Positions 1-54,892 of a stretch of DNA of 64,000 bases are shown piece by piece. The number at the start of each line of letters is the position of its first letter. The stretch's first letter is position 1. Below the pieces are notes generated by a model. It was not told the DNA's origin. It worked only from the letters and a program-made list of their open reading frames with translations, and searched no databases. The DNA comes from Otis tarda (taxonomy: Eukaryota; Chordata; Aves; Otidiformes; Otididae), in NCBI GenBank assembly GCA_026413225.1, contig JAPMTP010000076.1, positions 1 through 64,000 of the forward strand, given 5' to 3'. The position numbers and the translations under genes are program-made.

Positions 1-3000
1 AAAAAAAATCTCGAAAAATCACGAACGTTGGACCATTGCTCCAGCACACCAAAAGTGCCAGACACTCAAGCTACTTGCTGCCCCTCTCAGCGGCCATTGG
101 CAGTGCACCTACAGCAGCACAGAGACACTGGGGCTCCGGGCTTTCCCTGACGAACTGGGCTTCCACGTTTACCACCAGCTGCACGTGGGCGCCTTCCCTG
201 AAAAAAAACCCGAAAAATCACGAACGTCAGATTCGATTGCTCCCACAAGCAAAAGGGCCAGCCGCCACCACCAATGCTCTTGCTGCTCCTCAACTGGCCG
301 GCCATTGGCAGTGCACCTACAGCAGCACAGACAATTGGGGCTCCGGGCTTTCTCTGCAGGAGACAGGGCTTCGGTAGCGTTTGCCACCAGGTGTGCAATT
401 TTGGGCGCTCACTGAAAAAAACCCCGAAAAATCACGAACAGTCGGACTGGTCATTGCTTCCACACGAAAAGTGCCAGCCAGTCAAGCTCTTGCTGCCCCT
501 CAGCGGCCATTGGCAGTGCACCTACAGCAGCAGCACAGATACTGGGGCTGCGGGCTTTCCCTGGACCTGAAAAGGGCTTCCCACTTTTACCACCAGCTGC
601 ACGTGGGCGCCTCCTGAAAAAAAAAACCCCGAAAAAGTCACGCAACGTCGGACCATTGCTCCCACACCAAAAAGTGCCAGACACTCAAGCTCTTGCTGCT
701 CCTCAGCGGCCATTGGCGAGTGCACCTACAGCAGCACAGACATTACTGGGGCTCCGGGCTTTCCCTGACGAACAGGGCTTTTGACATATACCACCAGCGC
801 TACACGTGGGAGCCCCCGAACAAAAAACCCGAAAAAAAATCACGAACGTCGGACCATTGCTCCCACACCAAAAGTGCCAGCCACTTCCAAGCTCTTGCTG
901 CTCCTCAGCGGCCATAGTGTGTAGCGCACCTACAGCAGCACAGACATTGGGGCTCCAGTGCTTTCCCTGACGGGAACAGGGCTTCGATGTTTACCACCAG
1001 GTGCACGTGGGCGCCCCCTGAAAAAAAACCCCGAAAAATCACGTAACGTTGGACGATTGCTCCCACACCAAAAGGGCCAGCCACTCAAGCTCTTGCCGCT
1101 CCTCAGCGGCCATTGGTATGCGCACCTACAGCAGCACAGACATTGGGGCTCTGGGCTTTCCCTGACGAACAGGGCTTGATGACGATTATACCACCAGCTG
1201 CACGTGTGCGCCCCCTGAAAAAAAATCTCGAAAATCACGAACTTTGGACCGAAAAATTGCTCCCACACGAAAAGTGCTGCAGACATTCAAGCTCTTGCTG
1301 CTCATCAGCGCGCCATTGGCAGCGCTACCTACAGCACCACAGACATTGGGGCTCCGGGCTTTCTGGCCTGACGAACAGGGCTTTGACCATATCACCACCA
1401 GATACACGTGGGAGCCCCCTGAACAATAAACCCGAAAATCACAGAACGTCTGACTCATTAAGCATCCCACACCAAAGAAGATGCCAGCCACTCAAGCTCT
1501 TCCGCTGCTCCTCAGCGGCCATTGGCAGTGCACCTACAACGCAGCACCAGACATTGGGGCTCCGGGCTTTCCCTGACGAACAGGGCTTCGACAAGTTTAC
1601 ACCACCATCTAAACGTGGGCGCCAGGCACTGAAAAAAAGCCCGAAAAATCACGTAACGTCTGGGACGATTGCTCCCACACCAAAAGTGCCAGACACTCCA
1701 GCTTACTTGCTGCTCCTCAGCGGCCATTGGTAGCGCACGTACAGCAGCACAGACATTGCCGGGCTCTGGGCTTTCCTGCTGAGGAACAGGGCTTCGACTG
1801 TATACCACTAGCTGCAACGTGGGCGCCCCCTGAAAAAAAAAAAAAAATCTCGAAAAAATCACGAACGTTGGACCATTGCTCCCACACCAAAAGTGCTGCC
1901 AGACATTCGAAGCTCTTGCTGCTCCTCAGCGGCCATTGGCAGCGCACCTACAGCACCACAGACATTGGGGCTCCGGGCTCTCCCCCTGACGAACAGGGCT
2001 TGGACGCATATACCAGCAGCTACACGGCTGGGAGCCCTGAACAAAAAAACCCGAAAAATCACGAACGTCGCTGACCATTGCTGTTCTCAATAACGAAAAG
2101 TGCTGCAGCCACTCAAGCTCTTGCTGCTCCTCAGCTGGCCATTGGCAGATGCACCTACAGCAAGCACAGACGTGGGGCTCCGGGCTTTCCATGACGAACA
2201 GGGCTTCGACGTTTACCACCATCTACACGTGGGCGCCCACTGAAAAAAGCCCGAAAAATGCACGCAACGTCGGACCATTGCTCCCACACCAAAAGTGCCA
2301 GCCCACTCAAGCTCTTGCACTGCCCCTCAGCGGCCATAGGCAGTGCACCTACAGCAGCACTAAATATTGGGGCTCCGGGCATTTCCCTGATCGAACAGTG
2401 GGCTTCGACGTATAAACCCTCACCAGCTGCACCAGGGCGCTCACTGAAAATAACCCCCGAAAATCACGAACGTCGGACAAATTGCTCCTGCCACACCAAA
2501 AGAGGCCAGACACTCAAAGCACTTTTTGCTCATCAGCGGCCATTGGCAAGCGCGCACCCTTACAGCAATCACAGACATTGGGGCTCCGGGCTTTCCTTGA
2601 CGAACAGGAAGCTTCGACAAGTTTACCACCAGCTACACATGGGCGCCCACTGAAAAAAGCCCTGAAAAATCACGAACGTCGGACGATTGCTCCCACACCA
2701 AAAAGTGCCAGCCAATCAAGCTCTTTGCTGCTCCTCAGCAGCCATTGGCAACGCACCTGCACAGCAACGCTTACAGAGCATGGGGCTCCGGGCTTTCCAC
2801 AATGACGGGCAACAGGGCTTCGACGTTTACCACCAGCTGCACTCTGGGTGCCCCCTGAAAAAAAAACCCGAAAAAAACTGGCACAAACGTCGGACCATTG
2901 CTCCCACACCAAAAAGTGCCAGAAGCACTCAAAAAGCCTTCTTGCTGCTCCTCAGCGGCACATTGGCAGAGCACCCCTGCAGCACGCACAGACATTGGGG

Positions 3001-6000
3001 CTCCGGGCTTTCCCCTGAGGAGCAGGGCTTCGACGTTTGCCACCAGTGTGGAAACCTGCACGGTCAGCGCCCCCCTGAAAAAAAAAAACCCCTAACAAAA
3101 TTACGAACGTCGGACGCATTGCTCCCACACCAAAAGTGCCCAGGCCACTCAAGCTGCTTGCATGCCCCTCCAGAGGCCATGAGGCAGTGCACCTACAGCA
3201 GCACCGTATGTTGGGTCTCCAGGGCTTTCCCTGACGAACAGGGCTTCCACGTTTTACCACCATCTACACGTGGGAGCCCCCTGGAACAAAAAACCCGAAA
3301 AAATCACGAACGTCGGATCGAGTTGCTCCCACACCAGAAGTGCCAGCCCACTCAAGCTCTTGCTGCTCCTCAGCGGCCATTGGCAACACATCACCTACAG
3401 CAGCACAGACATTGGGGCTCCGGGCTTCTCCCTGACGAACAGGGCTTCCACGTTTACCACCAGCTACACGTGGTAGCCCCCCTTTAAAAAAAAAAAAAAA
3501 CCCGAAAAATCACGAACGTCGGACCATTGCTCCCACACCAAAAGTGCCAGCCACTCAAGCTCTTGCTGCTCCTCAGCGGCCATTGGCAGGTGCACCTACA
3601 GCAGCACAGACATTGGGGCTCCAGGATTTCCCTGACGAACAGGGCTTTAGACGCTTACCACCATGTACACGTGGGCGCCCACTGAAAAAACCCCGAAAAA
3701 ATCACGAACGTCGAACCATTGCTCCCACACCAAAAGGGCCAGCCACTCAAGCTCTTGCTGCTCCTCCAGCGGCCATTGGCACTCCACCTACAGCAGCACA
3801 GACATTGGGGCTCCCGGGCTTTCCCTGACGAACAGGGCTTAGACGTTTACCACCAGCTACACGTGGGAGCCCCCTGAAAAAAAAAAAACCTGAAAAATCA
3901 CGAACGTCGGACCATTGCTCCCACACCAAAAGTGCCAGCCACTCAAGCTCTTGCTGCTCCTCAGCGGACATTGGCAGTGCACCTACAGCCAGCACAGACA
4001 TTGGGGCTCCGGGCTTTCCCTGACGAACACTGGGGCTTCGACGTTTACCACCATGTCTAAACGTGGGCGCCCACTGAAAAAAACCCCGAAAAATCACGAA
4101 CGTCGGACGATTGCTCCCACACCAAAAGTGCTAGACACTCAAGCTCTTGCTGCTCCTCAGCGGCCATTGGTAGCGCACGTGACAGCAGCACAGACATTGG
4201 GGCCCCGGGCTTTCCCTGACGAACAGGACTTCCACGTTTACTACCAGCAGCTACACGTGGGAGCCCCTGAAAAAAAAAAAAACCGAAAAATCACGAACGT
4301 CGGACCATTGCTCCCACACCAAAAGTGCCAGCCACTCAAGCTCTTGCTGCTCCTCAGCGGCCATTGGCAGATGCACCTACAGCAGCACAGACATTGGGGC
4401 TTAGGGGTTTTGGAGCCTCTGACGAACAGGGCTTCCACGTTTACCACCATATACAGGTGGGCGCCCAATGAAAAAATCCCCAAAAAATCACGAACGTCCG
4501 GATGATTGCTCCCACACCAAAAGTGCTAGACACTCAAGCTCTTGCTGCTCCTCAGCGGCCATTGGTAGCGAACGTACAGCAGCACAGACATTGGAGTCCC
4601 CGCGCTATCCCCTGACGAACAGGGCTTCGATGTTAACCACACCAGGTACACGTGGGAGCCCCCCTGAAAAAAAACCCGAAAAATCACGAACAAAGGATGA
4701 TTGCTCCCACACCAAAAGTGGCAGCCACTCAGCTCTTGCTGCTCCTCAGCGGCCATTGGCAGTGCACCTACAGCAGCACAGACATTGAGGCTCCAGGCTT
4801 TCCCTGACGAACAGGGCTTCGACGTATACCACCAGCTACACGTGGGCGCCCACTGAAAAAAACCCCAAAAAATCACGAACGTTGGACCATTGCTCCCACA
4901 CCAAAAGTGCCAGACCACTCAAGCTCTTGCTGCTCCTCAGCGGCCATTGGCACCTCCACCTACAGCAGCACAGACATTGGGGCTCCGTGCTTTCCCTGAC
5001 TAACAGGAGCTTAGACGTTTACCACCAGTTGCACTGTGGGCGCTCCACTGAAAAAAACCACAAAAAATCACGAACGTCTGGATGATTGTACCCACACCAA
5101 AAGTGCCAGCCACTCTAATGCTCTTGCTGCTCTCTCAGCCGACTTTAGCAGCGCACCTACAGCAGCACAGACACTGGGGCTCCGGGTTTTCCCTGACAAA
5201 CCGGGCTTCGTCGTTTACCTACCAGCTGCACCTGGGCGCCCACACTGAAAAAAAATTTGAAAAAATCACGAATGTCGGACCATTGCTCCCACACCAAAAG
5301 TGCCAGCCACTCAAGCTCTTGCTGCTCCTCAGCGGCCATTGGTAGCGTACCTACAGCAGCACAGACATTGGGTCTCGGGGATTTCCCTGACGAACAGGGC
5401 TTCGAAGTTTACCACCAGCTGCACTTGGGTGCTCCCTGAAAAAAAAACCCCCAAAAATCACAAACGTGGGACCATTGCTCCCACACCAAAAGTGCCAGAC
5501 ACTCAAGCTCTTGCTGCTCCTCAGCGGCCATTGGCAGCACCTACAGCAGCACAGATATTGGGGCTCAGGGCTTTTCCTGACGAACAGGGCTTCGACGTTT
5601 AGCACCAGCTGCACTTGGGCGCTCCCGGGAAATAAAACCACAAAAATCACGAACGTCGGACGATTGCTCCCACACCAAAAGTGCCAGCCACTCAAGCTCT
5701 TGCTGCTCCTCAGCGGACATTGGCAGTCCACCTACCGCGCCAGAGACATTGGCAGGCTCCGGGCTTTCCCTGACGAACAGGGCTTCAATGTTTACCACCA
5801 GCTGCACGTGAGGCGCCCCCTGAAAAAACCCGAAAAAATCCACGAAAGTTGGACGAAGATTTACTCCCACACCAAATGTGCCAGCCACTCAAGCTCTTGC
5901 TGCTGCTCCTCAGCGGCCATTGGCAGTCCACGATACCGCACCAGAGACATTGAGGCTTCGGTCTTTCCCTGACGAACAGGGCTTCTACATTTACCACCAG

Positions 6001-9000
6001 CTGCACGTGGGCGTTCTCACTGAAAAAAAAACCCAAAAAATCACGAAGCTTGGACGATTGCTCCCACACCAAAAGTGCCAGCCACTCAAGCTCTTATGCT
6101 GCTCCTCAGCGGCCATTGGCAGTGCACCTACAGCAGCACAGACATTGGGGCTCCGGGCTTTCCCTGACGAACAGGAGCTTCGACGTTTACCACCAGCTGC
6201 AACAGGGCGCTCAATGAAAAAAAAACTGAAAAAATCACGAACGTCGGACCATTGCTCCCACATCAAAACACTGCCAGACACTCAAGATCTTTGCTGCTCC
6301 TCAGCGGCCATTGGCCAGCGCACCTCTGCACCTACAGAGCATTGCCGGATCCGGGCTTTCCCTGACGAATAGGGCTTCGACGTTTACCACCAGCTGCACT
6401 TGGGCGCTCCCTGAAAAAAACCCACAAAATCACAAACGTCAGGAAGCGATTGCTCCCACACCAAAAGTGCCAGCCCACTCAAGCTGTTGCTGCTCCTCAG
6501 CGGCCATTGGTAGCGCACCTACAGCAGCACAGACATTGGGGCTCCGGGCTTTCCCTGAGGAGCAGGCTTCGACGTTTGCCACCAGGTGCACGTGGACCCC
6601 CCTGAAAAAAAAAAACGCCGAAATATTACGAACGTCCGGACGATTGTACCCACACCAAATGTACCAGCCACTCAAGCTCTTGCTGCTCCTCAGCCGGCAA
6701 TTGGCAGTGCACCTAGAGCACCACAGAAATTGGGGCTCCGGGGTTTCTTCCATGACGAACAGGGCTTCGACGTATACCACCAGCTGCACGTAGGCGCCTG
6801 AAAAAAAAAACCCCGAGAAATCACGAACGTCGGACGGATTGCTCCCACACCAGAAGTGCCAGCCACTCAAGCTCTTGCTGCTCCTCAGCGGCCATTGGCA
6901 GCGCACCTACAGCAGCACAGACATTGGAAGGCTCCGGGCTTTCCCTGACGAACAGGGCTTAGACGTTTTAACCACCAGCTGCACTTGGGCGCTCCCGGAA
7001 AAAAAACCCCAAAAAATCACGAACGTAAGACCATTGCTCCCACACCAAAAGGGCCAGCCACTCCAGCTCTTGCTGCTCCTCAGCGGCCATTGGCAGCGCA
7101 CGCACAGCAGCCAACAGAACATTGGGAGCTCCGGGCACCTTCCCTGACGAACAGGGCTTCGATGTTTACCACCAGCTGCATTTGGGCGCTCCATGAAAAA
7201 AACACAAAAAATCACGAACGTCGGACCATTGCTCCCACACCAAAAGTGCCAGCCACTCAAGATCTTGCTGCTCTCAGCGGCCATTGGCAAAAGCGCACCT
7301 ACAGCAGCACAGACATTGGGGCTCCGGGCTTTATCTGGCGAACAGGGCTTCCGACGTTTACCACCAGCTACACGTGGGCGCCCACTGAAATAAACCACAA
7401 AAATCACGAACGTCGGACGATTGCTCCCACACCAAAAGTGCCAGCAGCTCAAGCTCTTGCTGCTCCTCAGCGGCCATTTGCAGCGCACCTACAGCAGCAC
7501 AGACATTGGGGCTCCGGGCTTTCCCTGACGAACTGGGCTTTGACGTATACCACCAGCTGCACGAGGGCGCTCGCACTTAAAAACCCCTAGAAAAATCCGC
7601 GACGAAGGTCGGAACATTGCTCCCACATGCAAATGTGCCAGCCACTCAAGCTCTTGCTGCTCCTCAGCGGCCATTGGCAGTGCACCTACAGCATCACAGA
7701 CACTGGGGCTCCGGGCTTTCCATGACGAACAGGGCTTCGCCGTTTACCACCAGCTGCACCAGGGCGTCCCCTGAAAATAACCCTGAAGAATCACGAACGT
7801 CCGGACGATTGCTCCACACCAAAAGTGCCAGCCACTCAAGCTCTTGCTGCTCCTCAGCGTGCTAATGGCAGCGCTTCAACCTACAGCAGCACAGACATTG
7901 GGGCTCCGGGCTTCTCCCTCACGAACAGGGCTTCGATGTTTACCACCAGCTGCACCAGGGCGCTCCCGGAAAAAAACCCCAAAAAATTCCAAACGCTCAA
8001 AGCTACTGCTCCCACACCAAAAGTGCCAGCCACTCAAGCTCTTGCTGCTCCTCAGCGGCCATTGGTAGCGCACCTACAGCAGCACAGACATTGGGGCTCC
8101 GGGCTTTCCCTGACGAACAGGGCTTCGACGTTTACTTCACCCGCAACACGTGGGCGACCCCTGAAAAAAAAACCCGAGAAATCACGAACGTCGGACCATT
8201 GCTCCCACACCAAAAGTGCCAGCCACTCAAGCTCTTGCTGCTCCTCAAGCGGCCTTTGGCGGCGCACCTACTACAGCAGCACAGACATTGGGGCTCCGGG
8301 CTTTCCATGACGAACAGGGCTTCGCCGTTTACCACCAGCTGCACCAGGGCGTCTCCTGAAAATAACCCTGAAGAATCACGAACGTCGGACGATTGCTCCA
8401 CACCAAAAGTGCCAGCCACTCAAGCTCTTGCTGCTCCTCAGCGGTCACTGGCAGCGCACCTTCAGCAGCACCAGACATTGGGGCTCCGGGCTTTCCCTGA
8501 CGAACAGGGCTTCGACGTTTACCACCAGCTGCACGTTGGAGCTCACTGAAAAAAAAAACTCGAAAAATCACGAACGTCAGGACGATTGCTCCCACACCAA
8601 AAGTGCCAGCCACTCAAGCTCTTGCTGCTCCTCAGCGGCCATTGGCAGTGCACCTACAGCAGCAAAGACATTGGGGCTCCCGGGCTTTCCCTGACGAACA
8701 GGGCTTCAACGTATACCACCAGCTGCACCTGGGCGCGACCCCTGAAAAAAAAAAACTCGAGAAAAATCACGAACGTCGGACCATTTGCTCTCACACCAAA
8801 AAGTGCCAGCCACTCAAGCTCTTGCTGCTCCCTCAGCGGTCATTGGCAGCGCACCTACCGCAGCACAGACATTGGGGCTCCGGCGTTTCCCTGATGAACA
8901 GGGCTTCGACGTATACCACCAGCTGCAACATGGAGCTCACTGAGAAAAACCCCGAAAAATCACAAACGTCAGACGATTGCTCCCACACCAAAAGTGCCAG

Positions 9001-9790
9001 CCACTCAAGCTCGCTTGCTGCTCCTCAGCGGCCATTGGCAGTACACCTACCGCACCACAGACATTGGGGCTCCGGGTATTTCCCCTGACGAATAGGGCTT
9101 CGACGTATACCACCAGCTGCACCGGGGCGCTCCCTGAAAAAAAATCCCCGAAAAATCCCGAACCTTGGATGATTGCTCCCACACGAAAAGTGCCAGCCAC
9201 TCAAGCTCTTGCTGCCCCTCAGCGGCCATTGGCTGTCCACCTACCGCACCACAGACATTGGGGCTCCGGTATTTCCCTGACGAACAGGGCTTCGACGTAT
9301 ACCACCAGCTGCACCTGGGCGCTCCCTGAAAAAAACACCAAAAAATCACGAACGTCGGACCATTGCTCCCACACCAAAAGGGCCAGACACTCAAGCTCAC
9401 GCTGCTCCTCAGCGGCCATTAGCAGCGCACCTACAGCAGCACAGACATTGGGGCTCCGGGCTTTCCCTGACGAACAGGGCTTCGACGTTTACCACCAGCT
9501 GCACCGGGGCCCCCTGAAAAAAACCCCGAAAAATCACGAACGTCAGACCGATTGCTCCCACACCAAAAGGGCCAGCCACTCAAGCTCTTGCTGCTCCTCA
9601 GCGGTCATTGGCAGTGCACCTACAGCAGCACAGACATTGGGGCTCCGGGCTTTCCCTGACGAACAGGGCTTCGAAGTTTTACCACCAGCTGCACGAGGGC
9701 GCCCCCTGAAAAAAACCCCGGAATAATCCCGAAACTTGGATGATTGCTCCACACCAAAAGTGCCAGCCACTCAATCTCGTGCTGCCCCTC
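1..9790. repeat. Insertion-rich copy of the block at ~13.2-23.2 kb
   Basis: Successive monomers carry the same private variants as those at 13.2-23.2 kb, in the same order. Examples are AAAAGGGCTTCCCACTTTT at about 560 and its clean form at 13340, the CTTTTTGCTCATCAG monomer at 2520 and 14990, CCATATACAGG/CCATATATAGG at 4450 and 17190, CGTAAGACC at 7024 and 19723, and TCAATCTCGTGCTG at 9772 and 23207. The offset starts near 12.4-12.8 kb and grows to 13.44 kb, because this copy lacks some monomers. Small insertions are scattered everywhere: ATTGC spacing averages about 205 bp over 35-3526 and about 196 bp over 3526-4700, then falls to 191-192 bp by 9 kb. The cause may be uncorrected long-read error or real decay. 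Confidence 0.85.
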
Positions 9791-12700
9791 AGCGGCCATT
9801 GGCAGTGCACCTACAGCAGCACAGACATTGGGGCTCCGGGCTTTCTCTGAGGAGCAGAGGCTTCGAAGTTTGCCCTGGGTACGCCCAGGTGCACTTGGGC
9901 GCTCCACTGAAAAAAACCCCGAAAAATCACGAACGTCGGACCATTGCTCCCAAACCAAAAGTTGCCAGCCACTCAAGCTCTTGCTGCTCCTCAGCGGACA
10001 TTGGCAGCGCACGTACAAGCAGCACAGACATTGGGGTTCCGGGCTTTCTCTGAGGGAGCAGGGCTTCGACGTTTGGCCACCAGGTGCACGTGTGGGCGCC
10101 CCACTGAAAAAAAAAAACCCCGAAAAATTACGAACGTCGGACGATTGGACGCACACCAAAAGTGCCAGCCACACAAGCTCTTGCTGCTCCTCAGCGGCCA
10201 TTGGCAGTGCACCTACAGCAAGGCACAGACATTGGGGCTCCGGGCTTTCCCTGACGAACAGGGCTTCGACGTTTACCACCAGCTGCACCTGGGCGCCCCT
10301 GAAAAAAAACCCCGAAAAATCACGAACGTTGGACGATTGCTCCCACACCAAAAGTGCCAGCCACACAAGCTCTTGCCTGCTCCTCAGCGGCCATGTGGCA
10401 GCGCACCCTCCAGCAGCACAGACATTGGGGCTCCAGGGCTTTCCCTGACGAACAGGGCTTCGACGTATACCACCAGCTGCACGTGGGCGCCCTGAAAAAA
10501 ATCTCAGAAAAATCACGAACGTTGGACCATTGCTCCAACACCAAAAGTGCCAGACACTCAAGCTCTTGCTGCCCCTCAGCGGCCATTGGCAGTGCACCTA
10601 CAGCAGCACAGACATTGGGGCTCCGGGCTTTCCCTGACGAACTGGGCTTCCACGTTTACCACCAGCTGCACGTGGGCGCCCACTGAAAAAACCCCCCAAA
10701 ATCACGACCGTCAGACGATTGCTCCCACAGCAAAAGGGCCAGCCACTCAAGCTCTTGCTGCTCCTCAGCTGCCATTGGCAGTGCACCTACAGCAGCACAG
10801 ACATTGGGGCTCCAGGCTTTCTCTGAGGAGCAGGGCTTCGACGCTTGCCACCAGCTGCACTTGGGCGCTCACTGAAAAAAACCCCCGAAAAATCACGAAC
10901 GTCGGACCATTGCTCCCACAATTCAAAAGTGCCAGACACTCTCAAGCTCTTGCTGCTCCTCAGCGGCCATTGGCAGTGCACCTGGCAGCAGCACAGACAT
11001 TGGGGCTCCGGGCTTTCCCTGACGAACAGGGCTTTGACATATACCACCAGCCTGCACGTGGGGGGCTCCCTGAACAAAAACCCGACGAAAATCACGAACG
11101 TCGGACCATTGCTCTCACACCGAACGTGCCAGCCACTCAAGCTCTTGCTGCTCCTCAGCGGCCATTGGCAGGTGCACCTACAGCAGCACAGACATTGGGG
11201 CTCCGGGGCTTTCCCTGACGAACAGGGCTTCGACGTTTACCACCATCTACACGTGCAGGCGCCCACTGAAAAAAAGCTCGAAGAAATCACGAACGTCGGA
11301 CGATTGCTCCCACACCAAAAGTGCCAGCCACTCAAGCTCTTGATGCTCCTCAGCGGCCATTGGCATGCTTGCACGTACAAGCAGCACAGACATTGGGGCT
11401 CCGGGCTTTCCCTGAGGAGCAGGGCTTCGACGTTTGCCACCAGGTACACGTGCGCGCCCCCCAAAAAAAAAACCCCGAAAAATCACGAACGTCGGACGAT
11501 TGCTCCCACACCAAAAGTCCCAGCCACTCAAGCTCTTGCTGCTCCTCAGCGGCCATTGTCAGCGCACCTACAGCAGCACAGACATTGGGGCTCCGGGCTT
11601 TCCCTGACGAACAGGGCTTCGACGTATACCACCAGCTGCACGTGGGCGCTCCCTGAAAAAAAACCCCCGAAAAATCACGAACGTTGAATGACCATTGCTC
11701 CCACACCAAAAGTGCCAGCCACTCAAGCTCTTGCTGCCCCTCAGCGCTATAGGCAGTGCACCAACAGCAGCAGAGACATTGGGGCTCCGGGCTTTCCCTG
11801 ACGAACAGGGCTTAGACGTTTACCACCATCTACACGTGGGCGCCCAATGAAAAACGCCCCGAAAAATCACGAACGTGGAAGACCATTGCTCCCACACCCA
11901 AAAGTGCCAGCCACTCAAGCTCTTGCTGCTCCTCAGCGGCCATTGGCACTCCACCTACAGCAGCACAGACATTGGGGCTCCGGGCTTTCCCTGACGAACA
12001 GGGGCTTCAACGTTTACCACCCAGCTGCACGTGGCGCTCCCGGAAAAAAAAACCACAAAAAATCACGAACGTCGGACGATTGCTCCCACACCAAAGTGCC
12101 AGCCACTCAAGCTCTTGCTGCTCCTCAGCGGCCATTGGCAGCGCACCTACAGCAGCACAGACATTGGGGCTCCGGGCTTTCTCTGAGGAGCAGGGCTTCG
12201 ACGTTTGCCACCAGGTGCACGTCGGCGCCCCTGAAAAAAAAAAAACCCTGAAAAATTACAGAATGTCGGACGATTGTACCCACACCAAAAGTGCCAGCCA
12301 CTCAAGCTCTTGCTGCCCCTCAGCGGCCATTGGCAGTGCACCTACAGCAGCACAGACATTGGGGCTCCGGGCTTTCCCTGACGAACAGGTCTTCGACGTA
12401 TCCCACCAGCTGCACGTGGGCGCCCACTGAAAAAAAAAATCTCGAAAAATCACGAACGTTGGACCATTGCTCCAACACCAAAAGTGCCAGACACTCAAGC
12501 TCTTGCTGCCCCTCAGCGGCCATTGGCAGTGCACCTACAGCAGCACAGACATTGGGGCTCCGGGCTTTCTCTGAGGAGCAGGGCTTCGACGTTTGCCACC
12601 AGGTGCACTTGGGCGCTCACTGAAAAAAACCCCGAAAAATCACGAACGTCGGACCATTGCTCCCAAACCAAAAGTGCCAGCCACTCAAGCTCTTGCTGCT

Positions 12701-13230
12701 CCTCAGCGGACATTGGCAGCGCACGTACAGCAGCACAGACATTGGGGTTCCGGGCTTTCTCTGAGGAGCAGGGCTTCGACGTTTGCCACCAGGTGCACCT
12801 GGGCGCCCCCTGAAAAAAAAACCCCGAAAAATCACGAACGTTGGACGATTGCTCCCACACCAAAAGTGCCAGCCACACAAGCTCTTGCTGCTCCTCAGCG
12901 GCCATTGGCAGCGCACCTACAGCAGCACAGACATTGGGGCTCCGGGCTTTCCCTGACGAACAGGGCTTCGACGTATACCACCAGCTGCACCAGGGCGCCC
13001 CCTGAAAAAAAAATCTCGAAAATCACGAACGTTGGACCATTGCTCCCACACCAAAAGGGCCAGCCACTCAAGCTCTTGCTGCCCCTCAGCGGCCATAGGC
13101 AGTGCACCTACAGCAGCACAGACATTGGGGCTCCGGGCTTTCCCTGACGAACAGGGCTTCGACGTATACCACCAGCTGCACGTGGGCGCCCCCTGAAAAA
13201 AAATCTCGAAAAATCACGAACGTTGGACCA
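9791..13230. repeat. Local rearranged satellite block rich in GAGGAGCAGGG monomers
   Basis: Near 9840 the monomer order jumps from the TCAATCTCGTGCTG type to a monomer with CTGAGGAGCAG and TTTGCC, and then follows the order seen from 12560 onward. Shared rare features include CCCAAACCAAAAG at about 9950 and 12664, and GGGGTTCCGGGCTTTCTCTG at about 10035 and 12744. A monomer with GAACTGGGCTTCCACG at 10640 also matches the one at 150. CTGAGGAGCAGGG variants cluster here at about 10054, 10830, 11411, 12184, 12572 and 12763, against scattered single copies elsewhere. The block is moderately indel-rich up to about 11.46 kb and then clean. Confidence 0.75.
13173..13191. repeat. Representative triple palindrome CAGCTG-CACGTG-GGGCGCCC
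   Basis: CAGCTG (13173-13178), CACGTG (13179-13184) and GGGCGCCC (13184-13191) abut in this monomer. CAGCTG and CACGTG are E-box cores of the kind bound by bHLH proteins, and CACGTG is the USF/MYC-MAX type. The CACGTG part is the most variable stretch of the monomer. In other copies it reads CACCTG, CACCAG, CACTTG, CACCGG, CACGAG or CATTTG, so it is not under obvious array-wide constraint. Confidence 0.65.
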
Positions 13231-16200
13231 TTGCTCCCACACGAAAAGTGCCAGCCAGTCAAGCTCTTGCTGCCCCTCAGCGGCCATTGGCAGTGCACCT
13301 ACAGCAGCACAGATACTGGGGCTCCGGGCTTTCCCTGACGAAAAGGGCTTCCACTTTTACCACCAGCTGCACGTGGGCGCTCCCTGAAAAAAAACCCCGA
13401 AAAATCACGAACGTCGGACCATTGCTCCCACACCAAAAGTGCCAGACACTCAAGCTCTTGCTGCTCCTCAGCGGCCATTGGCAGTGCACCTGCAGCAGCA
13501 CAGACATTGGGGCTCCGGGCTTTTCCCTGACGAACAGGGCTTTGACATATACCACCAGCTACACGTGGGAGCCCCCCTGAACAAAAACCCGAAAAAATCA
13601 CGAACGTCGGACCATTGCTCCCACACCAAAAGTGCCAGCCACTCAAGCTCTTGCTGCTCCTCAGCGGCCATTGGTAGCGCACCTATAGCAGCACAGACAT
13701 TGGGGCTCCGTGTGCTTTCCCTGACGAACAGGGCTTCGATGTTTACCACCAGGTGCACGTGGGCGCCCCCTGAAAAAAAAAAAAACCCCGAAAAATCACG
13801 AACGTTGGACGATTGCTCCCACACCAAAAGGGCCAGCCACTCAAGCTCTTGCTGCTCCTCAGCGGCCATTGGTAGCGCACCTACAGCAGCACAGACATTG
13901 GGGCTCTGGGCTTTCCCTGACGAACAGGGCTTCGACTGTCTATACCACCAGCTGCACGTAAAAAATCTCGAAAAATCACGAACGTTGGACCCATTGCTCC
14001 CACACGAAAAGTGCTAGACATTCAAAGCTCTTGCTGCTCCTCAAGCCATTGGCAGTGCACCTGCAGCAGCACAGACATTGGGGCTCCGGGCTTTCCCTGA
14101 CGAACAGGGCTTCGACGTTTACCACCATCTAAACGTGGGCGCCCACTGAAAAAAAAGCCCGAAAAATCACGAACGTCGGACGATTGCTCCCACACCAAAG
14201 TGCCGAGACACTCAAGCTCTTGCTGCTCCTCAGCGGCCATTGGTAGCGCACGTACAATGCAGCACAGACATTGGGGCTCCTAGGGCTTTCCCTGAGGAAC
14301 AGGGCTTCGACGTATACCACCAGCTGCACGTGGGCGCCCCTGAAAAAAATGCCCAAAAATCAGGAATGTTGGACCATTGCTCCCACACCAAAAGTGCTAG
14401 ACATTCAAGCTCTTGCTGCTCCTCAGCGGCCATTGGCAGCGCACCTACAGCACCACAGACATTGGGGCTCCGGGCTTTCCCTGACGAACAGGGCTTTGAC
14501 ATATACCAGCAGCTACACGTGGGAGGCCCCTGGAACAAAAACCCGAAAAATCACGAACGTCGGACCATTGCTCTCACACGAAAAGTGCCAGCCACTCAAG
14601 CTCTTGCTGCTCCTCAGCGGCCATTGGCAGTGCACCTACAGCAGCACAGACATTGGGGCTCCGGGCTTTTCCCTGACGAACAGGGCTTCGACGTTTACCA
14701 CCATCTACACGTGGGCGCCCTACTGAAAAAAAGCCCGAAAAATCACGAACGTCGGACCATTGCTCCCACACCAAAAGTGCCAGCCACTCAAGCTCTTGCT
14801 GCCCCTCAGCGGCCATAGGCAGTGCACCTACAGCAGCACAAATATTGGGGCTCCGGGCTTTCCCTGACGAACAGGGCTTCGACGTATACCACCAGCTGCA
14901 CCAGGGCGCTCACTGAAAATAACCCCGAAAAATCACGAACGTCGGACAATTGCTCCCACACCAAAAGGGCCAGACACTCAAGCACTTTTTGCTCATCAGC
15001 GGCCATTGGCAGCGCACCTACAGCACCACAGACATTGGGGCTCCGGGCTTTCCTTGACGAACTGGGCTTCGAATCAGCGTTTACCACCAGCTACACATGG
15101 GCGCCCACTGAAAAAAGCCCGAAAAATCACGAACGTCGGACGATTGCTCCCACACCAAAAGTGCCAGCCAATCAAGCTCTTGCTGCTCCTCAGCAGCCAT
15201 TGGCAGCGCACCCTACAGCAGCACAGACATGGGGGCTGGAATCCTCGGGCTTTCCCTGACGAACAGGGCTTCGTCGTTTACCACGAGCTGCACCTGGGTG
15301 CACCCCTCTGAAAAAAAACCCGAAAAATCACAAACGTCGGACCATTGCTCCCACACCAAAAGTGCCAGCCACTCAAGCTCTTGCTGCTCCTCAGCGGCCA
15401 TTGGCAGAGCACCTACAGCAGCACAGACATTGGGGCTCCGGGCTTTCCCTGAGGAGCAGGGCTTCGACGTTTGCCACCAGGTGCACGTCAGCGCCCCCTG
15501 AAAAAAAAAACCTAAAAAATTACGAACGTCGGACGATTGCTCCCACACCAAAAGTGCCAGCCACTCAAGCTCTTGCTGCCCCTCAGAGGCCATAGGCAGT
15601 GCACCTACAGCAGCACCGATATTGGGTCTCCGGGCTTTCCCTGACGAACAGGGCTTTCCACGTTTACCACCATCTACACGTGGGAGCCCGCTGAACAAAA
15701 AACCCGAAAAATCACGAAAGTCGGACGATTGCTCCCACACCAGAAGTGCCAGCCACTTCAAGCTCTTGCTGCTCCTCAGCGGCCATTGGCACTCCACCTA
15801 CAGCAGCACAGACATTGGGGCTCCGGGCTTTCCCTGACGAACAGGGCTTCCACGTTTACCACCAGCTACACGTGGTAGCCCCCTTTAAAAAAAAAACCCG
15901 AAAATCACGAACGTCGGACCATTGCTCCCACACCAAAAGTGCCAGCCACTCAAGCTCTTGCTGCTCCTCAGCGGCCATTGGCAGTGCACCTACAGCAGCA
16001 CAGACATTGGGGCTCCGTGCTTTCCCTGACGAACAGGGCTTAGACGTTTACCACCATGTACACGTGGGCGCCCACTGAAAAAAACCCCGAAAAATCACGA
16101 ACGTCGAACCATTGCTCCCACACCAAAAGGGCCAGCCACTCAAGCTCTTGCTGCTCCTCAGCGGCCATTGGCACTCCACCTACAGCAGCACAGACATTGG

Positions 16201-18839
16201 GGCTCCGGGCTTTCCCTGACGAACAGGGCTTAGACGTTTACCACCAGCTACACGTGGGAGCCCCCTGAAAAAAACCTGAAAAATCACGAACGTCGGACCA
16301 TTGCTCCCACACCAAAAGTGCCAGCCACTCAAGCTCTTGCTGCTCCTCAGCGGCCATTGGCAGTGCACCTACAGCAGCACAGACATTGGGGCTCCGGGCT
16401 TTCCCTGACGAACAGGGCTTCGACGTTTACCACCATCTAAACGTGGGGCGCCCACTGAAAACGAACGTCGGACGATTGCTCCCATGCACCAAAAGTGCTA
16501 GACACTCAAGCTCTTGCTGCTCCTCAGCGGCCATTGGTAGCTGCATACAGCAGCACAGACATTGGGGCCCCGGGCTTTCCCTGACGAACAGGACTTCCAC
16601 GTTTACTCAGCAGCTACACGTGGGAGCCCCCTGAAAAAAAAAAACCGAAAATCACGAACGTCGGACCATTGCTCCCACACCAAAAGTGCCAGCCACTCAA
16701 GCTCTTGCCTGCTCCTCAGCGGCCATTGGCAGTGCACCTACAGCAGCACAGACATTGGGGCTCCGGGCTTTCCCTGGCGAACAGGGCTTCGACGTTTACC
16801 ACCATCTACACGTGGGCGCTCACTGAAAAAAAACCCCGAAAAATCACTAACGTCGAACCATTGATCCCACACCAAAAGGACCAGCCACTCCAAGCTCTTG
16901 CTGCTCCTCAGCGGCCATTGGCACTCCACCTACAGCAGCACAGACATTGGGGCTCCGGGCTTTCCCTGACGAACAGGGCTTCGACGTTTACCACCAACTG
17001 CACGGGCGCTCCCTGAAAATAAACCACAAAAAATCACGAACGTCGGACCGATTGCTCCCACACCAAAAGTGCCAGCCACTCCAAGCTCTTGCTGCTCCTC
17101 AGCGGCCATTGGCAGTGCACCTACAGCAGCACAGACATTGGGGCTTAGGGCTTTCCCTGACGAACAGGGCTTCCACGTTTACTACCATATATAGGTGGGC
17201 GCCCAATGAAAAATCCCCCAAAAAAATCACGAACGTCGGATGATTGCTCCCACACCAAAAGTGCTAGACACTCAAGCTCTTGCTGCTCCTCAGCGGCCAT
17301 TGGTAGCGAACGTACAGCAGCACAGACATTGGGTCCCCGCGCTATCCCTGACGGAACAGGGCTTCGACGTTAACCACCAGGTACACGTGGGAGCCCCCTG
17401 AAAAAAAAACCCGAAAAATCACGAACAAAGGATGATTGCTCCCACACCAAAAGTGGCAGCCACTCAAGCTCTTGCTGCTCCTCAGCGGCCATTGGCAGTG
17501 CACCTACAGCAGCACAGACATTGGGGCTCCGGGCTTTCCCTGACGAACAGGGCTTCGACGTATACCACCAGCTACACGTGGGCGCCCACTGAAAAAAACC
17601 CCGAAAAATCACGAACGTTGGACCATTGCTCCCACACCAAAAGTGCCAGCCACTCAAGCTCTTGCTGCTCCTCAGCGGCCATTGGCACTCCACCTACAGC
17701 AGCACAGACATTGGGGCTCCGTGCTTTCCCTGACTAACAGGGCTTAGACGTTTACCACCAGTTGCACGTGGGCGCTCCCTGAAAAAAAACCACAAAAAAT
17801 CACGAACGTCGGATGATTGTACCCACACCAAAAGTGCCAGCCACTCAAGCTCTTGCTGCTCCTCAGCCGGCTTAAGCAGCGCACCTACAGCAGCACAGAC
17901 ACTGGGGCTCCGGGTTTTCCCTGACAAACAGGGCTTCGTCGTTTACCACCAGCTGCACCTGGGCGCCCCCTGAAAAAAAAATTGGAAAAATCACGAATGT
18001 CGGACCATTGCTCCCACACCAAAAGTGCCAGCCACTCAAGCTCTTGCTGCTCCTCAGCGGCCATTGGTAGCGTACCTACAGCAGCACAGACATTGGGTCT
18101 CCGGGCTTTCCCTGACGAACAGGGCTTCGACGTTTACCACCAGCTGCACTTGGGTGCTCCCTGAAAAAAAACCCCAAAAAATCACAAACGTGGGACCATT
18201 GCTCCCACACCAAAAGTGCCAGCCACTCAAGCTCTTGCTGCTCCTCAGCGGCCATTGGCAGCGCACCTACAGCAGCACAGATATTGGGGCTCGGGGCTTT
18301 TCCTGACGAACAGGGCTTCGACGTTTAGCACCAGCTGCACTTGGGCGCTCCCGGAAATAAAAACCACAAAAAATCACGAACGTCGGACGATTGCTCCCAC
18401 ACCAAAAGTGCCAGCCACTCAAGCTCTTGCTGCTCCTCAGCGGACATTGGCAGTCCACCTACCGCGCCAGAGACATTGGGGCTCCGGGCTTTCCCTGACG
18501 AACAGGGCTTCAATGTTTACCACCAGCTGCACGTGGGCGCCCCCTGAAAAAAACCCGAAAAATCACGAAAGTTGGACGATTACTCCCACACCAAATGTGC
18601 CAGCCACTCAAGCTCTTGCTGCTCCTCAGCGGCCATTGGCAGTCCACGTACCGCACCAGAGACATTGAGGCTTCGGTCTTTCCCTGACGAACAGGGCTTC
18701 TACATTTACCACCAGCTGCACGTGGGCGCTCCCTGAAAAAAAAACCCAAAAAATCACGAAGCTTGGACGATTGCTCCCACACCAAAAGTGCCAGCCACTC
18801 AAGCTCTTGCTGCTCCTCAGCGGCCATTGGCAGTGCACC
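13231..18839. repeat. Satellite block, cleaner counterpart of 430-6130
   Basis: These monomers pair in order with those at 430-6130. The differences are whole-monomer gains and losses plus small indels. A hybrid monomer at about 13980-14165 replaces two monomers found at about 1232-1640. Two additional monomers lie at about 16.7-17.0 kb. Small deletions occur at about 13959 (loss of the GGGCGCCCCCTGA segment), 14041 (four bases) and 16460 (most of the A-tract module). From about 17 kb the sequence is clean, with monomer spacing close to 191 bp. Confidence 0.8.
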
Positions 18840-21800
18840 TACAGCAGAACAGACATTGGGGCTCCGGGCTTTCCCTGACGAACAGGGCTTCGACGTTTAC
18901 CACCAGCTGCAACAGGGCGCTCAATGAAAAAAAAAACTGAAAAAATCACGAACGTCGGACCATTGCTCCCACATCAAAACTGCCAGACACTCAAGATCTT
19001 GCTGCTCCTCAGCGGCCATTGGCAGCGCACCTACAACACCACAGACATTGCGGATCCGGGCTTTCCCTGACGAATAGGGCTTCGACGTTTACCACCAGCT
19101 GCACTTGGGCGCTCCCTGAAAAAAAACCCACAAAATCACAAACGTCAGACGATTGCTCCCACACCAAAAGTGCCAGCCACTCAAGCTGTTGCTGCTCCTC
19201 AGCGGCCATTGGTAGCGCACCTACAGCAGCACAGACATTGGGGCTCCGGGCTTTCCCTGAGGAGCAGGGCTTCGACGTTTGCCACCAGGTGCACGTGGAC
19301 CCCCCCTGAAAAAAAAAAACGCCGAAATATTACGAACGTCGGACGATTGTACCCACACCAAATGTACCAGCCACTCAAGCTCTTGCTGCTCCTCAGCGGC
19401 AATTGGCAGTGCACCTAGAGCACCACAGAAATTGGGGCTCCGGGCTTTCCATGACGAACAGGGCTTCGACGTATACCACCAGCTGCACGTGGGCGCCCCC
19501 TGAAAAAAAAAACCCCGAGAAATCACGAACGTCGGACGATTGCTCCCACACCAGAAGTGCCAGCCACTCAAGCTCTTGCTGCTCCTCAGCGGCCATTGGC
19601 AGCGCACCTACAGCAGCACAGACATTGGGGGCTCCGGGCTTTCCCTGACGAACAGGGCTTAGACGTTTACCACCAGCTGCACTTGGGCGCTCCCGGAAAA
19701 AAAAACCCCAAAAAATCACGAACGTAAGACCATTGCTCCCACACCAAAAGGGACAGCCACTCAAGCTCTTGCTGCTCCTCAGCGGCCATTGGCAGCGCAC
19801 GTACAGCAGCACAGACATTGGGGCTCCGGGCTTTCCCTGACGAACAGGGCTTCGACGTTTACCACCAGCTGCATTTGGGCGCTCCATGAAAAAAAAACAC
19901 AAAAAATCACGAACGTCGGACCATTGCTCCCACACCAAAAGTGCCAGCCACTCAAGATCTTGCTGCTCCTCAGCGGCCATTGGCAGCGCACCTACAGCAG
20001 CACAGACATTGGGGCTCCAGGCTTTCCCTGACGAACAGGGCTTTGACGTATACCACCAGCTTCACGTGGGCGCCCACTGAAAAATAAACCCCGAAAAATC
20101 ACGAACGTCGGACCATTGCTCCCACACCAAAAGTGCCAGCCACTCAAGCTCTTGCTGCTCCTCAGCGGCCATTGGCAGTGCACCTACAGCAGCACAGACA
20201 TTGGGGCTCCGGGCTTTCCCTGACGAACAGGGCTTCGACGTTTACCACCAGCTGCATTTGGGCGCTCCATGAAAAAAAAAAAAAAAAAAACACAAAAAAT
20301 CACGAACGTCGGACCATTGCTCCCACACCAAAAGTGCCAGCCACTCAAGATCTTGCTGCTCCTCAGCGGCCATTGGCAGCGCACCTACAGCAGCACAGAC
20401 ATTGGGGCTCCAGGCTTTCCCTGACGAACAGGGCTTCCACGTTTAACACCAGCTACACGTGTTAGCACCCTGAAAATAAAACCCCGAAAAATTACGAACG
20501 TCGGAAGATTGTACCCACAACAAAAGTGCCAGCCACTCAAGCTCTTTTTGCTCCTCAGCGGCCATTGGCAGCGCACCTACAGCAGCACAGACATTGGGGC
20601 TCCGGGCTTTCCCTGACGAACAGGGCTTCGACGTTTACCACCAGCTGTAACAGGGCGCTCACTGAAAAAAACCGCAAAAAATCATGAACGTCGGACGATT
20701 GCTCCCACACGAAAAGTGCCAGCCACTCAAGCTCTTGATGCTCCTCAGCGGCCATTGGCCGTGCACCACAGCAGCACAGACATTGGGGCTCCGGGCTTTC
20801 CCTGACGAACAGGGCTTACCGCTTACCACCAGCTGCACCAGGTCGCTCATTGAAAACAACCCCAAAAAATCACGAACGTTGGACCATTGCTCCCACACCA
20901 GAAGTGCCAGCCACTCAAGCTCTTGCAGCTCCACAGCGGCCATTGGCAGCGCACCTACAGCAGCACAGAAACTGGGGCTCCCGGGCTTTATCTGGCGAAC
21001 AGGGGCTCTTCGAATGCTACCACCAGCTACACGTGGGCGCCCACTGAAATAAACCACAAAAATCACGAGCGTCAGGCGATTGCTCCACCGCAACAAAAGT
21101 GCCAGCAACTCAGCTCTTGCTGCTCCTCAGCGGCCATTTGCAGCGCACCTACAGCAGCACAGACATTGGGGCTCCGGGCTTTCCCTGACGAACTGGGCTT
21201 TGACGTGACCACCAGCTGCACGAGGGCGCTCACTTAAAAAAACCTTCCCGAAAAATCACGAAGGTCGGAACATTGCTCCCACCAAATGTGCCAGCCACTC
21301 AAGCTCTTGCTGCTCCTCAGCGGCCATTGGCAGCGCACCTACAGCATCACAGACACTGGGGCTCCGGGCTTTCCATGACGAACAGGGCTTCGCCGTTTAC
21401 CACCAGCTGCACCAGGGCGTCCCCTGAAAATAACCCTGAAGAATCACGAACGTCGGACGATTGCTCCACACCAAAAGTGCCAGCCACTCAAGCTCTTGCT
21501 GCTCCTCAGCGGTCACTGGCAGCGCACTCTACAGCAGCACAGACTTTGGGGCTCCGGGCTTTCCCTGACGAACAGGGCTTCGACGTTTACCACCCGCAAC
21601 ACGTGGGCGACCCCTGAAAAAAAAACCCGAGAAATCACGAACGTCGGACCATTGCTCCCACACCAAAAGTGCCAGCCACTCTTGCTGCTCCTCAGCGGCC
21701 GTTGGCGGCGCACCTGCAGCAGCACAGACATTGGGGCTCCGGGCTTTCCATGACGAACAGGGCTTCGCCGTTTACCACCAGCTGCACCAGGGCGTCTCCT

Positions 21801-27500: not shown

Positions 27501-29495
27501 CCAGCTGCACCGGGGCGCTCCCTGAAAAAAAACCCCCGAAAAATCCCGAACCTTGGATGATTGCTCCCACACGAAAAGTGCCAGCCACTCAAGCTCTTGC
27601 TGCCCCTCAGCGGCCATTGGCTGTCCACCTACCGCACCACAGACATTGGGGCTCCGGTATTTCCCTGACGAACAGGGCTTCGACGTATACCACCAGCTGC
27701 ACCTGGGCGCTCCCTGAAAAAAAACACCAAAAAATCACGAACGTCGGACCATTGCTCCCACACCAAAAGGGCCAGACACTCAAGCTCTTGCTGCTCCTCA
27801 GCGGCCATTAGCAGCGCACCTACAGCAGCACAGACATTGGGGCTCCGGGCTTTCCCTGACGAACAGGGCTTCGACGTTTACCACCAGCTGCACCGGGGCC
27901 CCCTGAAAAAAACCCCGAAAAATCACGAACGTCAGACGATTGCTCCCACACCAAAAGGGCCAGCCACTCAAGCTCTTGCTGCTCCTCAGCAGCCATTGGC
28001 AGCGCACCTACAGCAGCACAGACATTGGGGCTCCGGGCTTTCCCTGACGAACAGGGCTTCGAAGTTTACCACCAGCTGCACGAGGGCGCCCCCTGAATTA
28101 AACCCCCGAATAATACCGAAACTTGGATGATTGCTCCCACACCAAAAGTGCCAGCCACTCAATCTCGTGCTGCCCCTCAGCGGCCATTGGCAGTGCACCT
28201 ACAGCAGCACAGACATTGGGTCTCCGGGCTTTCCCTGACGAACAGGGCTTCGACGTTTACCACCAGCTGCACGTGGGCGCTCTCGGAAAAAAAACCCCGA
28301 AAAATCACGAACGTCGGACGATTGCTCCCACACCAAAAGTGCCAGCCACTCAAGCTCTTGCTGCTCCTCAGCAGCCATTGGCAGCGCACCTACAGCAGCA
28401 CAGACATTGGGGCTCCGGGCTTTCCCTGACAAACAGGGCTTCCACGTTTACCACCAGCTGCAGCATGGAGCTAACTGAAAAAAACGCTGAAAAATCATGA
28501 ACGTCGGACGATTACTCCCACAACAGAAGTGCCAGCCACTCAAGCTCTTTATGCTCCTCAGCGGCCATTGGCAGTGCACCTACAGCAGCACAGACATTGG
28601 GGCTCCGGGCTTTCCCTGACGAACAGGGCTTCGAAGTTTACCACCAGCTGCACGAGGGCGCCCCCTGAAAAAAACCCCGAAAAATCCCGAACCTTGGATG
28701 ATTGCTCCCACACCAAAAGTGCCACACACTCAAGCTCTTGCTGCCCCTCAGCGGCCATTGGCAGCGCACCTACAGCAGCACAGACTTTGGGGCTCCGGGC
28801 TTTCCCTGACGAACAGGGCTTCGACGTTTACCACCAGCTGCACGTTGGAGCTCACTGAAAAAAAAACTCGAAAAATCACGAACGTCGGACGATTGCTCCC
28901 ACACCAAAAGTGCCAGCCACTCAAGCTCTTGCTGCTCCTCAGCGGCCATTGGCAGCGCACCTACAGCAGCACAGAAACTGGGGCTCCGGGCTTTATCTGG
29001 CGAACAGGGCTTCGACGTTTACCACCAGCTACACGTGGGCGCCCACTGAAATAAACCACAAAAATCACGAACGTCAGACGATTGCTCCCGCACCAAAAGT
29101 GCCAGCAACTCAAGCTCTTGCTGCTCCTCAGCGGCCATTTGCAGCGCACCTACAGCAGCACAGACATTGGGGCTCCGGGCTTTCCCTGACGAACTGGGCT
29201 TTGACGTATACCACCAGCTGCACGAGGGCGCTCACTTAAAAAAACCTCGAAAAATCACGAAGGTCGGAACATTGCTCCCACACCAAATGTGCCAGCCACT
29301 CAAGCTCTTGCTGCTCCTCAGCGGCCATTGGCAGCGCACCTACAGCAGCACAGACACTGGGGCTCCGGGCTTTCCATGACGAACAGGGCTTCGCCGTTTA
29401 CCACCAGCTGCACCAGGGCATCCCCTGAAAATAACCCTGAAGAATCACGAACGTCGGACGATTGCTCCACACCAAAAGTGCCAGCCACTCAAGCT
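24541..29495. repeat. ~26-monomer block, edition II of 18.84-24.54 kb
   Basis: This repeats the monomer succession of the preceding block with about four monomers missing in its middle. Rare markers recur at fixed offsets: CGAAATATTGTTGAACG near 25052, CGTAAGACC at 25456, TCAATCTCGTGCTG near 28160, GCATGGAGCTAACTG near 28463, and TTTATCTGGCG near 28992. Over 26.29-29.49 kb the match to edition I looks nearly base-perfect, and many of the differences are A-tract length. The pair is best explained by a recent tandem duplication or unequal exchange inside the array. Confidence 0.85.
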
Positions 29496-54600: not shown

Positions 54601-54892
54601 TGCTCCCACACGAAAAGTGCCACACACTCAAGCTCTTGCTGCTCCTCAGCGGCCATTGGCAGTGCACCTACAGCAGCACAGACATTGGGGCTCCGGGCTT
54701 TCCCTGACGAACAGGGCTTCGACGTATACCACGAGCTGCACCGGGGCGCCCCCTGAAAAAAAACCCCGAAAGATCACGAACGTCGGACGATTGCTCCCAC
54801 ACCAAAAGTGCCAGCCACTCAAGCTCTTGCTGCTCCTCAGCGGCCACTGGCAGCGCACGTACAGCAGCACAGACATTGGGGCTCCGGGCTTT

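What the first reader, a model, noticed from the sequence alone, without database searches (positions are those of the whole stretch)
1..9790. First 9.8 kb is a monomer-by-monomer duplicate of ~13.2-23.2 kb but full of small insertions
Rare variants occur in identical order in both places, so the two stretches share a recent origin. Yet the left copy has ATTGC spacing averaging about 205 bp over 35-3526, while its counterpart is close to 191 bp. A real paralogue that decayed only by one- to three-base insertions while keeping every diagnostic substitution is implausible. Uncorrected long-read noise or a false duplication in the assembly fits better.
Basis: partly seen in the sequence, partly recalled or inferred. 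Interest (0 to 1): 0.7.

Follow-up and report, generated by a model that had tools for sequence, protein, structure and literature searches.

The report
Noisy contig end in satellite array
The start of this contig is a real stretch of 191-base satellite DNA that really is repeated further along, but it carries a few hundred false extra bases because the contig's end was poorly polished, so the oddity is an assembly blemish and not biology.

Summary
The 64 kb window is one 191-bp satellite array (334 monomers). Its base 1 is base 1 of contig C70 (262,070 bp).

About 414-9708 matches 13196-23142 in order: 91 mismatches in 7,962 aligned bases over four chosen blocks, against about 7-8% for two arbitrary pairs. 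Whole monomers were gained or lost, and a third partial copy lies at about 24.5-29.6 kb.

The extra bases, mostly one to three at a time, fall in steps from the contig end: about 50, 16, 12, 3.4 and 0.2 events per kb, with one nearly clean kilobase at 12.4-13.4 kb. They do not stop at 9.8 kb; the "clean" counterpart has some.

A second contig, C80, read in reverse, is co-linear and clean. It lacks 238 of 251 inserted bases called in window 3000-13400, so those are consensus errors. C80 also carries both copies in the same order with largely the same spacer, so the internal duplication is probably real.

A different false duplication is likely: C80's end matches window 39,700-49,270 with 2 mismatches in 9,170. 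No reads were available, and C80:10001-24000 was not read.

The parts
1..64000 (+). 191-bp satellite array, head to tail, 334 monomers, 4.4-7.7% substitutions from the array consensus per 2 kb
414..9708 (+). left copy of the multi-monomer block (monomers 2-48)
9709..13195 (+). stretch between the two copies (monomers 49-66); most of it is also found between the two blocks on C80, with single-monomer differences
13196..23142 (+). right copy (monomers 67-118), net five more monomers than the left copy
24470..29612 (+). third, partial copy; 26193-29612 differs from 21236-24655 by 32 of 3,398
1..3400 (.). highest noise tier: 49.7 insertion events per kb after leaving out five sites with recurrent length variants
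   Evidence: base rates
3401..12400 (.). second noise tier: 15.8 insertion events per kb, running past the end of the left copy
12401..13400 (.). nearly clean island: 0 events after leaving out the five variable sites, 3 with them
13401..27600 (.). lower noise tiers: 12.0 per kb to 15.4 kb, then 3.4 per kb; covers the right copy
39700..49270 (+). match to the first 10 kb of contig C80 (reverse complement): 9,168 matches, 2 mismatches, three one-monomer gaps, 54 bases in small gaps; C80 base 1 falls at 49,270
44851..53422 (+). block duplication in the clean part (44851-51327 against 47898-53422), showing that multi-monomer duplication is usual in this array

Best explanation
Two separate things overlap here. 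(1) Real: a 191-bp satellite array that grows by duplicating blocks of tens of monomers; the left and right copies are two such blocks (unequal exchange as the mechanism is inferred). (2) Not real: most of the extra bases. Window base 1 is the end of contig C70, where probably few reads support the consensus. A low-depth consensus keeps bases seen in only one or two reads, so the error is almost purely insertions, falling in steps as more reads join (read depth and this step are inferred). Besides this, window about 2.9-49.3 kb is co-linear with the end of contig C80 wherever it was compared, probably because two overlapping contigs were never merged, so tens of kb of array probably appear twice in the assembly.
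For: The window is C70:1-64000. Insertions fall stepwise from the contig end, 49.7 to 0.22 events per kb. They are scattered: 129 single-base insertions in 1-3600 at 93 consensus positions, 56 equal to a neighbour (43%) against 45% expected. Deletions stay at 0.3-0.5% in the worst 4 kb. 238 of 251 inserted bases in 3000-13400 are absent from C80; window-extra bases outnumber C80-extra bases 270 to 53 in 9,940 aligned. Ten of the 20 loci, chosen as clean full satellite, have 89 small events in 100 kb. Some other contig ends in this satellite are noisy: of 20 ends read, 12 are satellite; 4 have clearly raised insertions (C97, C116, C94 starts, C47 end), 3 are mixed (C88 start, C88 end, C45 start) and 5 are clean. 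C80 holds both blocks in the same order and a further related block upstream. Three blocks of C80 and the right copy differ by 4-7 of about 1,909. 2 mismatches in 9,170 at C80's end. PMC8081667 (passages) describes dovetail overlaps at contig boundaries and differing consensus quality. PMC4906657 (passages) says that searching directly for the heaviest path can favour an insertion error with one supporting sequence.
Against: No reads or coverage were available, so depth is inferred. Five of 12 satellite contig ends are clean (C5, C10, C53, C80 starts, C107 end), so being an end does not by itself give noise. That raw single-pass reads are insertion-rich is recalled; the one raw-data table seen (PMC5964698, passage) has insertions 2.9% and deletions 8.8%. 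In the lower tiers inserted bases equal a neighbour somewhat more often than chance (67 of 123 and 37 of 63 against 45%; 69 of 113 of those checked against C80). The clean island at 12.4-13.4 kb is unexplained. Window 1-2.86 kb has no positional counterpart in C80, so the worst-hit insertions are judged only against the consensus and the right copy, and the overlap does not reach C70's first base. C70 and C80 differ by a net 26 monomers between window 3.9 and 28.9 kb, which plain overlap does not predict.
Confidence: 0.85

Rival explanations
1. The left copy is a false (under-collapsed) duplicate of the right copy, built from the same locus with uncorrected reads.
For: Left and right share variants in order. 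In monomers 25-34 the left copy is about equally far from the right copy and from three C80 blocks (45-48 mismatches of about 1,901), while those four differ by 4-7, so the left copy's excess looks private and error-like.
Against: C80 carries both blocks with largely the same spacer in clean sequence. Left and right differ by whole monomers. In monomers 41-48 the left copy is nearer to C80's left block (11 of 1,520) than to the right copy (25 of 1,515).
Confidence: 0.06
2. C70 and C80 are two haplotypes of one array, both kept in the assembly.
For: They differ by a net 26 monomers between window 3.9 and 28.9 kb, and by 0.4-1.2% substitutions per kb over window 5-12 kb.
Against: 2 mismatches in 9,170 at 39,700-49,270 is very low for two alleles of a satellite (expectation recalled, not measured here).
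Confidence: 0.28
3. C70 and C80 are separate loci (sister arrays) and both are real.
For: Satellites of this family occur on many contigs; window 1-2.86 kb does not continue the match.
Against: The match ends at C80's first base. 23 satellite loci read from 12 other contigs scored 0.8-8.3 on the measure that gave C80 180-240; only parts of those contigs were read.
Confidence: 0.14
4. The insertions are true mutations in a decaying array.
For: None beyond their presence in the sequence.
Against: Insertions without a matching rise of deletions, stepped from the contig's first base, mostly absent from C80 where this can be tested.
Confidence: 0.01

Closest known systems
Homotype false duplication, overlapping-contig-boundary type (Vertebrate Genomes Project, PMC8081667; passages seen)
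   Same: Two contigs share sequence at an end, apparently from one locus, with differing consensus quality.
   Different: The shared stretch (about 46 kb, with a 10-kb part not compared) is longer than the corrected-read length described there, does not reach C70's first base, and the two versions differ by a net 26 monomers in part of it.
Satellite arrays with multi-monomer (higher-order-like) block amplification, as in primate alpha satellite (recalled)
   Same: Blocks of many monomers are duplicated as units and differ far less between blocks than arbitrary monomers do.
   Different: No fixed higher-order period was found: one search lists nine offsets from 12 to 96 monomers, and adds others.
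Zebra finch Tgut191A centromeric repeat (name and length recalled)
   Same: Same monomer length as recalled.
   Different: Sequence kinship could not be tested. Three 14- to 17-base pieces of this monomer and their reverse complements occur in no paper of the library, and the name occurs in none of the ten papers listed.

Membership tests
Satellite DNA array | long head-to-tail array of one unit | tested here: met
   one TRF row for 1-63999, period 191, 333.5 copies
Satellite DNA array | same unit at many places in the genome | tested here: met
   hits on many contigs
Low-depth, unpolished contig end | stretch lies at the contig's end | tested here: met
   window = C70:1-64000
Low-depth, unpolished contig end | error rate falls with distance from the end | tested here: met
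   change points; one clean island breaks the trend
Low-depth, unpolished contig end | inserted bases absent from an independent version of the locus | tested here: met
   238 of 251 in window 3000-13400; 1-2.86 kb not testable against C80
Low-depth, unpolished contig end | low read depth | not testable with these tools
   no reads held
Homotype false duplication by overlapping contig ends (C70/C80) | end-to-end dovetail layout | tested here: inconclusive
   C80 base 1 falls at window 49,270, but the match stops at window about 2.86 kb, short of C70's first base, and C80:10001-24000 was not read
Homotype false duplication by overlapping contig ends (C70/C80) | same sequence apart from errors | tested here: inconclusive
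   2 of 9,170 at 39.7-49.3 kb, but net 26 monomers different at 3.9-28.9 kb
Under-collapsed false duplicate (left copy made from right copy) | no independent sequence contains both copies | tested here: not met
   C80 contains both, with largely the same spacer
Under-collapsed false duplicate (left copy made from right copy) | reads show excess k-mer copies or half depth | not testable with these tools
   no reads held
Tgut191A | sequence identity with the zebra finch repeat | not testable with these tools
   no copy of that sequence seen in any call

The most novel reading that the evidence does not exclude
In this genome, probably a bird's, a 191-bp satellite array is being amplified in large blocks of variable length (offsets of 12 to 96 monomers). 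Three block copies on the clean contig C80 differ by only 5-7 of about 1,909 bases, so recent block amplification by unequal exchange, without a fixed higher-order period, is shaping the array.
Probability: 0.6. Interest if true: 0.25.

Novelty: not a real feature. Interest (0 to 1): 0.1.

Why it matters
As biology the inserted bases mean nothing. The practical point is that monomer length, divergence or age estimates taken from the first 12-27 kb of this contig would be off. Tens of kb of C70 are probably counted twice with C80 in copy-number work. The internal duplication should not be purged as false without reads, because the clean contig shows it too.

Tried and rejected
Left copy as a false copy of the right copy: rejected, because C80 carries both. 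Insertions as a mutation process: rejected, because they are stepped from the contig end and mostly absent from C80. Nanopore-type noise: disfavoured, because deletions are not raised, while one review of early MinION data says deletions are about twice as common as insertions or substitutions (PMC4719071, passages).

Substitutions not seen elsewhere in the array show no rise comparable to the insertions, but are not flat: 4-7 per 3.6-kb block in 0-21.6 kb, 0-3 in 21.6-43.2 kb, 4-11 in 43.2-57.6 kb, 23 and 20 in the last two blocks. The test is weak, since only about a third of random errors would be new. One search shows a private excess of mismatches in the left copy, so some substitution error or alignment slip there is likely. 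In one search one C80 stretch, picked as right-type counterpart of monomers 41-48, did not match (132-140 of about 1,518 against all others); it was the wrong stretch or a different block and is not used. The same call gave 43 of 2,094 for the spacer against C80, where one search gave 0.7-0.8% per kb. One search gave 55 mismatches for 41.0-49.3 kb, with wider or shifted starts, gave 0 to 2, so I take the 55 as a start cut just before the one-monomer gap at 41,482. The 100-kb background used 10 of the 20 loci; the other ten had 0.9-13.9 small events per kb and were left out for non-satellite stretches, divergent monomers, long insert clusters, contig ends or local noise.

Led nowhere: plasmid search (no match); paper search for monomer pieces (0 papers); listings for a named repeat, and passages of two of those papers; a genome search that scored only four candidates and missed even the window itself. 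Species was not established: that it is a bird is recalled knowledge from genome size and the look of one insert.

Changes made on checking: the C70/C80 overlap was cut from 49 to about 46 kb and its dovetail layout from met to inconclusive, since window 1-2.86 kb is not matched; the main confidence went from 0.88 to 0.85 for that reason, and the three main rivals up by 0.01-0.03.

Full report
WHAT IS THERE. The window is one head-to-tail array of a 191-bp unit. A wrap-around alignment to the array's own 191-bp consensus gives 334 monomers. The genome is held: G000, 1,198,220,595 bases in 116 contigs. The window is C70:1-64000, so its first base is the contig's first base. C70 is 262,070 bp long. 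The same satellite occurs on many other contigs.

THE DUPLICATION. A monomer-level local alignment pairs about 414-9708 with 13196-23142. The whole path (77 pairs) scores 118, and five runs with permuted monomer order reached at most 11.2. That path chains on into weaker and later matches; the left/right part is the runs with offsets 65, 64, 66, 71 and 70. Nucleotide alignment of four well-aligned blocks gives 91 mismatches in 7,962 aligned bases, against 284 of 3,690 and 200 of 2,948 for two arbitrary pairs. The blocks leave out about 1206-1519, 4401-4429 and 7379-8019, where monomers were gained or lost. A third partial copy lies at about 24.5-29.6 kb, and further block duplications lie in the clean part (44-53 kb, 1.35-1.53% mismatch). 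Such duplications are therefore usual in this array.

THE INSERTIONS. Insertions per 2 kb are 7.1% in 1-4 kb, 2.0-2.8% in 4-12 kb, 0.45-1.5% in 12-26 kb and 0.0-0.4% beyond. Substitutions (4.4-7.7%) and deletions (0.15-1.24%) show no matching rise on the left. A Poisson segmentation of insertion events, with five variable consensus sites left out (385 of 452 events kept), gives tiers of 49.7, 15.8, 0, 12.0, 3.4 and 0.22 per kb, with breaks at 3.4, 12.4, 13.4, 15.4 and 27.6 kb. The preference for six tiers over four is slight (BIC -229.9 against -228.9). In 1-3600, 129 single-base insertions fall on 93 consensus positions, and 56 (43%) equal a neighbour against 45% expected; in 3601-13200 and 13201-26000 it is 67 of 123 and 37 of 63, somewhat above chance. 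The insertions continue past 9.8 kb and into the right copy. Over 46 paired monomers there are 301 distinct inserted bases left, 64 right and 7 shared.

THE INDEPENDENT VERSION. C80 gave the best match after the window itself, and stood out among the fetched loci. Read in reverse it is co-linear with the window: C80:24001-44000 pairs with window 3880-28857 (100 monomers, mean 98.8%), and C80:1-10000 with 39513-49231 (49 monomers, 99.5%). On the same measure, where the three 10-kb C80 loci scored 180-240, 23 loci from 12 other contigs scored 0.8-8.3; parts of C70 downstream that hold block copies scored 82.6-145.7 and two others 2.4. C80 is clean in these stretches: insertion rates 0.0-0.4% per kb, up to 0.9% in its first 10 kb. 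In window 3000-13400, 238 of 251 bases called as inserted against the consensus are absent from C80, and window-extra bases number 270 against 53 C80-extra in 9,940 aligned bases. This test allows four bases on either side, so a few may agree by chance.

IS THE DUPLICATION FALSE? C80 holds a left-type block, then largely the same spacer (relatives of window monomers 50-51, 53-62 and 64-66, with single-monomer differences), then a right-type block. Upstream of these it holds a further related block, at C80 44.9-49.0 kb. Four versions of monomers 25-34 (right copy and three C80 blocks) differ by 4-7 of about 1,909 bases, while the left copy differs from all four by 45-48 of about 1,901. The left copy's excess is thus private, consistent with error or alignment slip in its noisy consensus, and the block itself is repeated in clean sequence. 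A three-way comparison of left, right and third copy gave 37 left-only, 1 right-only and 26 third-only differences in one stretch, and 11, 17 and 4 in another. I conclude that the duplication is real and most of the inserted bases are not. The weak point is that both contigs come from one assembly.

A DIFFERENT FALSE DUPLICATION. Window 39,700-49,270 and C80's first 10 kb share 9,168 matches with 2 mismatches, three one-monomer gaps and 54 bases in small gaps, and C80's first base falls at window 49,270. The Vertebrate Genomes Project paper describes this kind: overlapping sequences at contig boundaries, with differing consensus quality (PMC8081667, passages). A companion paper reports satellite repeats furthest above expectation in false duplications in some cases (PMC9516828, passages). 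Two facts do not fit a simple end-to-end overlap. C70 has a net 26 monomers more than C80 across window 3.9-28.9 kb. Window 1-2.86 kb has no positional counterpart in C80, where the sequence turns into another block at about 44.9 kb; its best matches elsewhere are C80:32966-34083 and C70:14033-15157, both 90% with gaps (window 1500-2700). Two haplotypes, separate loci, or a misjoin or collapse in one contig could explain them.

HOW THE NOISE ARISES (inferred). At a contig end only a few reads may overlap. One consensus paper says that a direct search for the heaviest path can favour an insertion error with a single supporting sequence (PMC4906657, passages), while a base missing from one read is restored by another. 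This would give insertions without deletions, falling in steps as reads join. It matches the tiers, but depth was not seen. Other contig ends support it in part. Of 20 ends read besides C70's start, 7 were not satellite (C65 end, C69, C75, C59, C61, C66 starts, C70 end), one was withheld (C71) and 12 were satellite. C116 start has 2.0-6.3% insertions over 1-4 kb (its first 500 bp has 0.6% with 4.6% deletions, and the next 500 bp fits poorly), 1.6-5.3% at 4-9 kb, and 1.6-2.5% at 15-16 kb before becoming clean; 9-15 kb was not read. C94 start has 1.6-3.7%, C47 end 1.2-3.1% with divergent monomers, and C97 start has raised insertions, deletions and substitutions together. C88 start, C88 end (0-3.9%, but 0.4% in the last 500 bp) and C45 start are mixed. 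C5, C10, C53 and C80 starts and C107 end are clean. Contig-end noise is therefore recurrent but not universal.

VERDICT. As a finding it is an assembly artefact on top of an ordinary satellite feature; interest is low.

Noticed in passing
L009:5022-6165 (C70:69022-70165): A 1,144-bp insert in the array that begins TG and ends CA and is flanked by ACCAC on both sides; it looks like a solo LTR (recalled resemblance to avian endogenous retrovirus LTRs; not searched).
   Followed up: no
C70 about 92-94 kb (L011/L012): The satellite array switches strand after a stretch that does not fit the satellite.
   Followed up: no
C70:258071-262070 (L037): The other end of the contig is a different satellite, period 238 bp, 16.7 copies, 98% matches.
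   Followed up: no
window 54-64 kb and C70:64-90 kb (L009-L011): Blocks of window 54-64 kb recur downstream at about 99% per monomer; window 57.6-64 kb also has the most substitutions not seen elsewhere in the window (23 of 257 and 20 of 200).
   Followed up: no
window 12401-13400: A nearly insertion-free island between two noisy tiers, just before and into the right copy; unexplained.
   Followed up: partly
L017 (C88:1-10000) and L028 (C47:362001-372000): Clusters of extra sequence, about 70 bases within one bin, at three places in each locus; perhaps a longer monomer variant.
   Followed up: no
C97:1-4000 (L034): First 2 kb is satellite on the opposite strand to the rest and noisy in insertions, deletions and substitutions alike, as a raw read might be.
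   Followed up: partly
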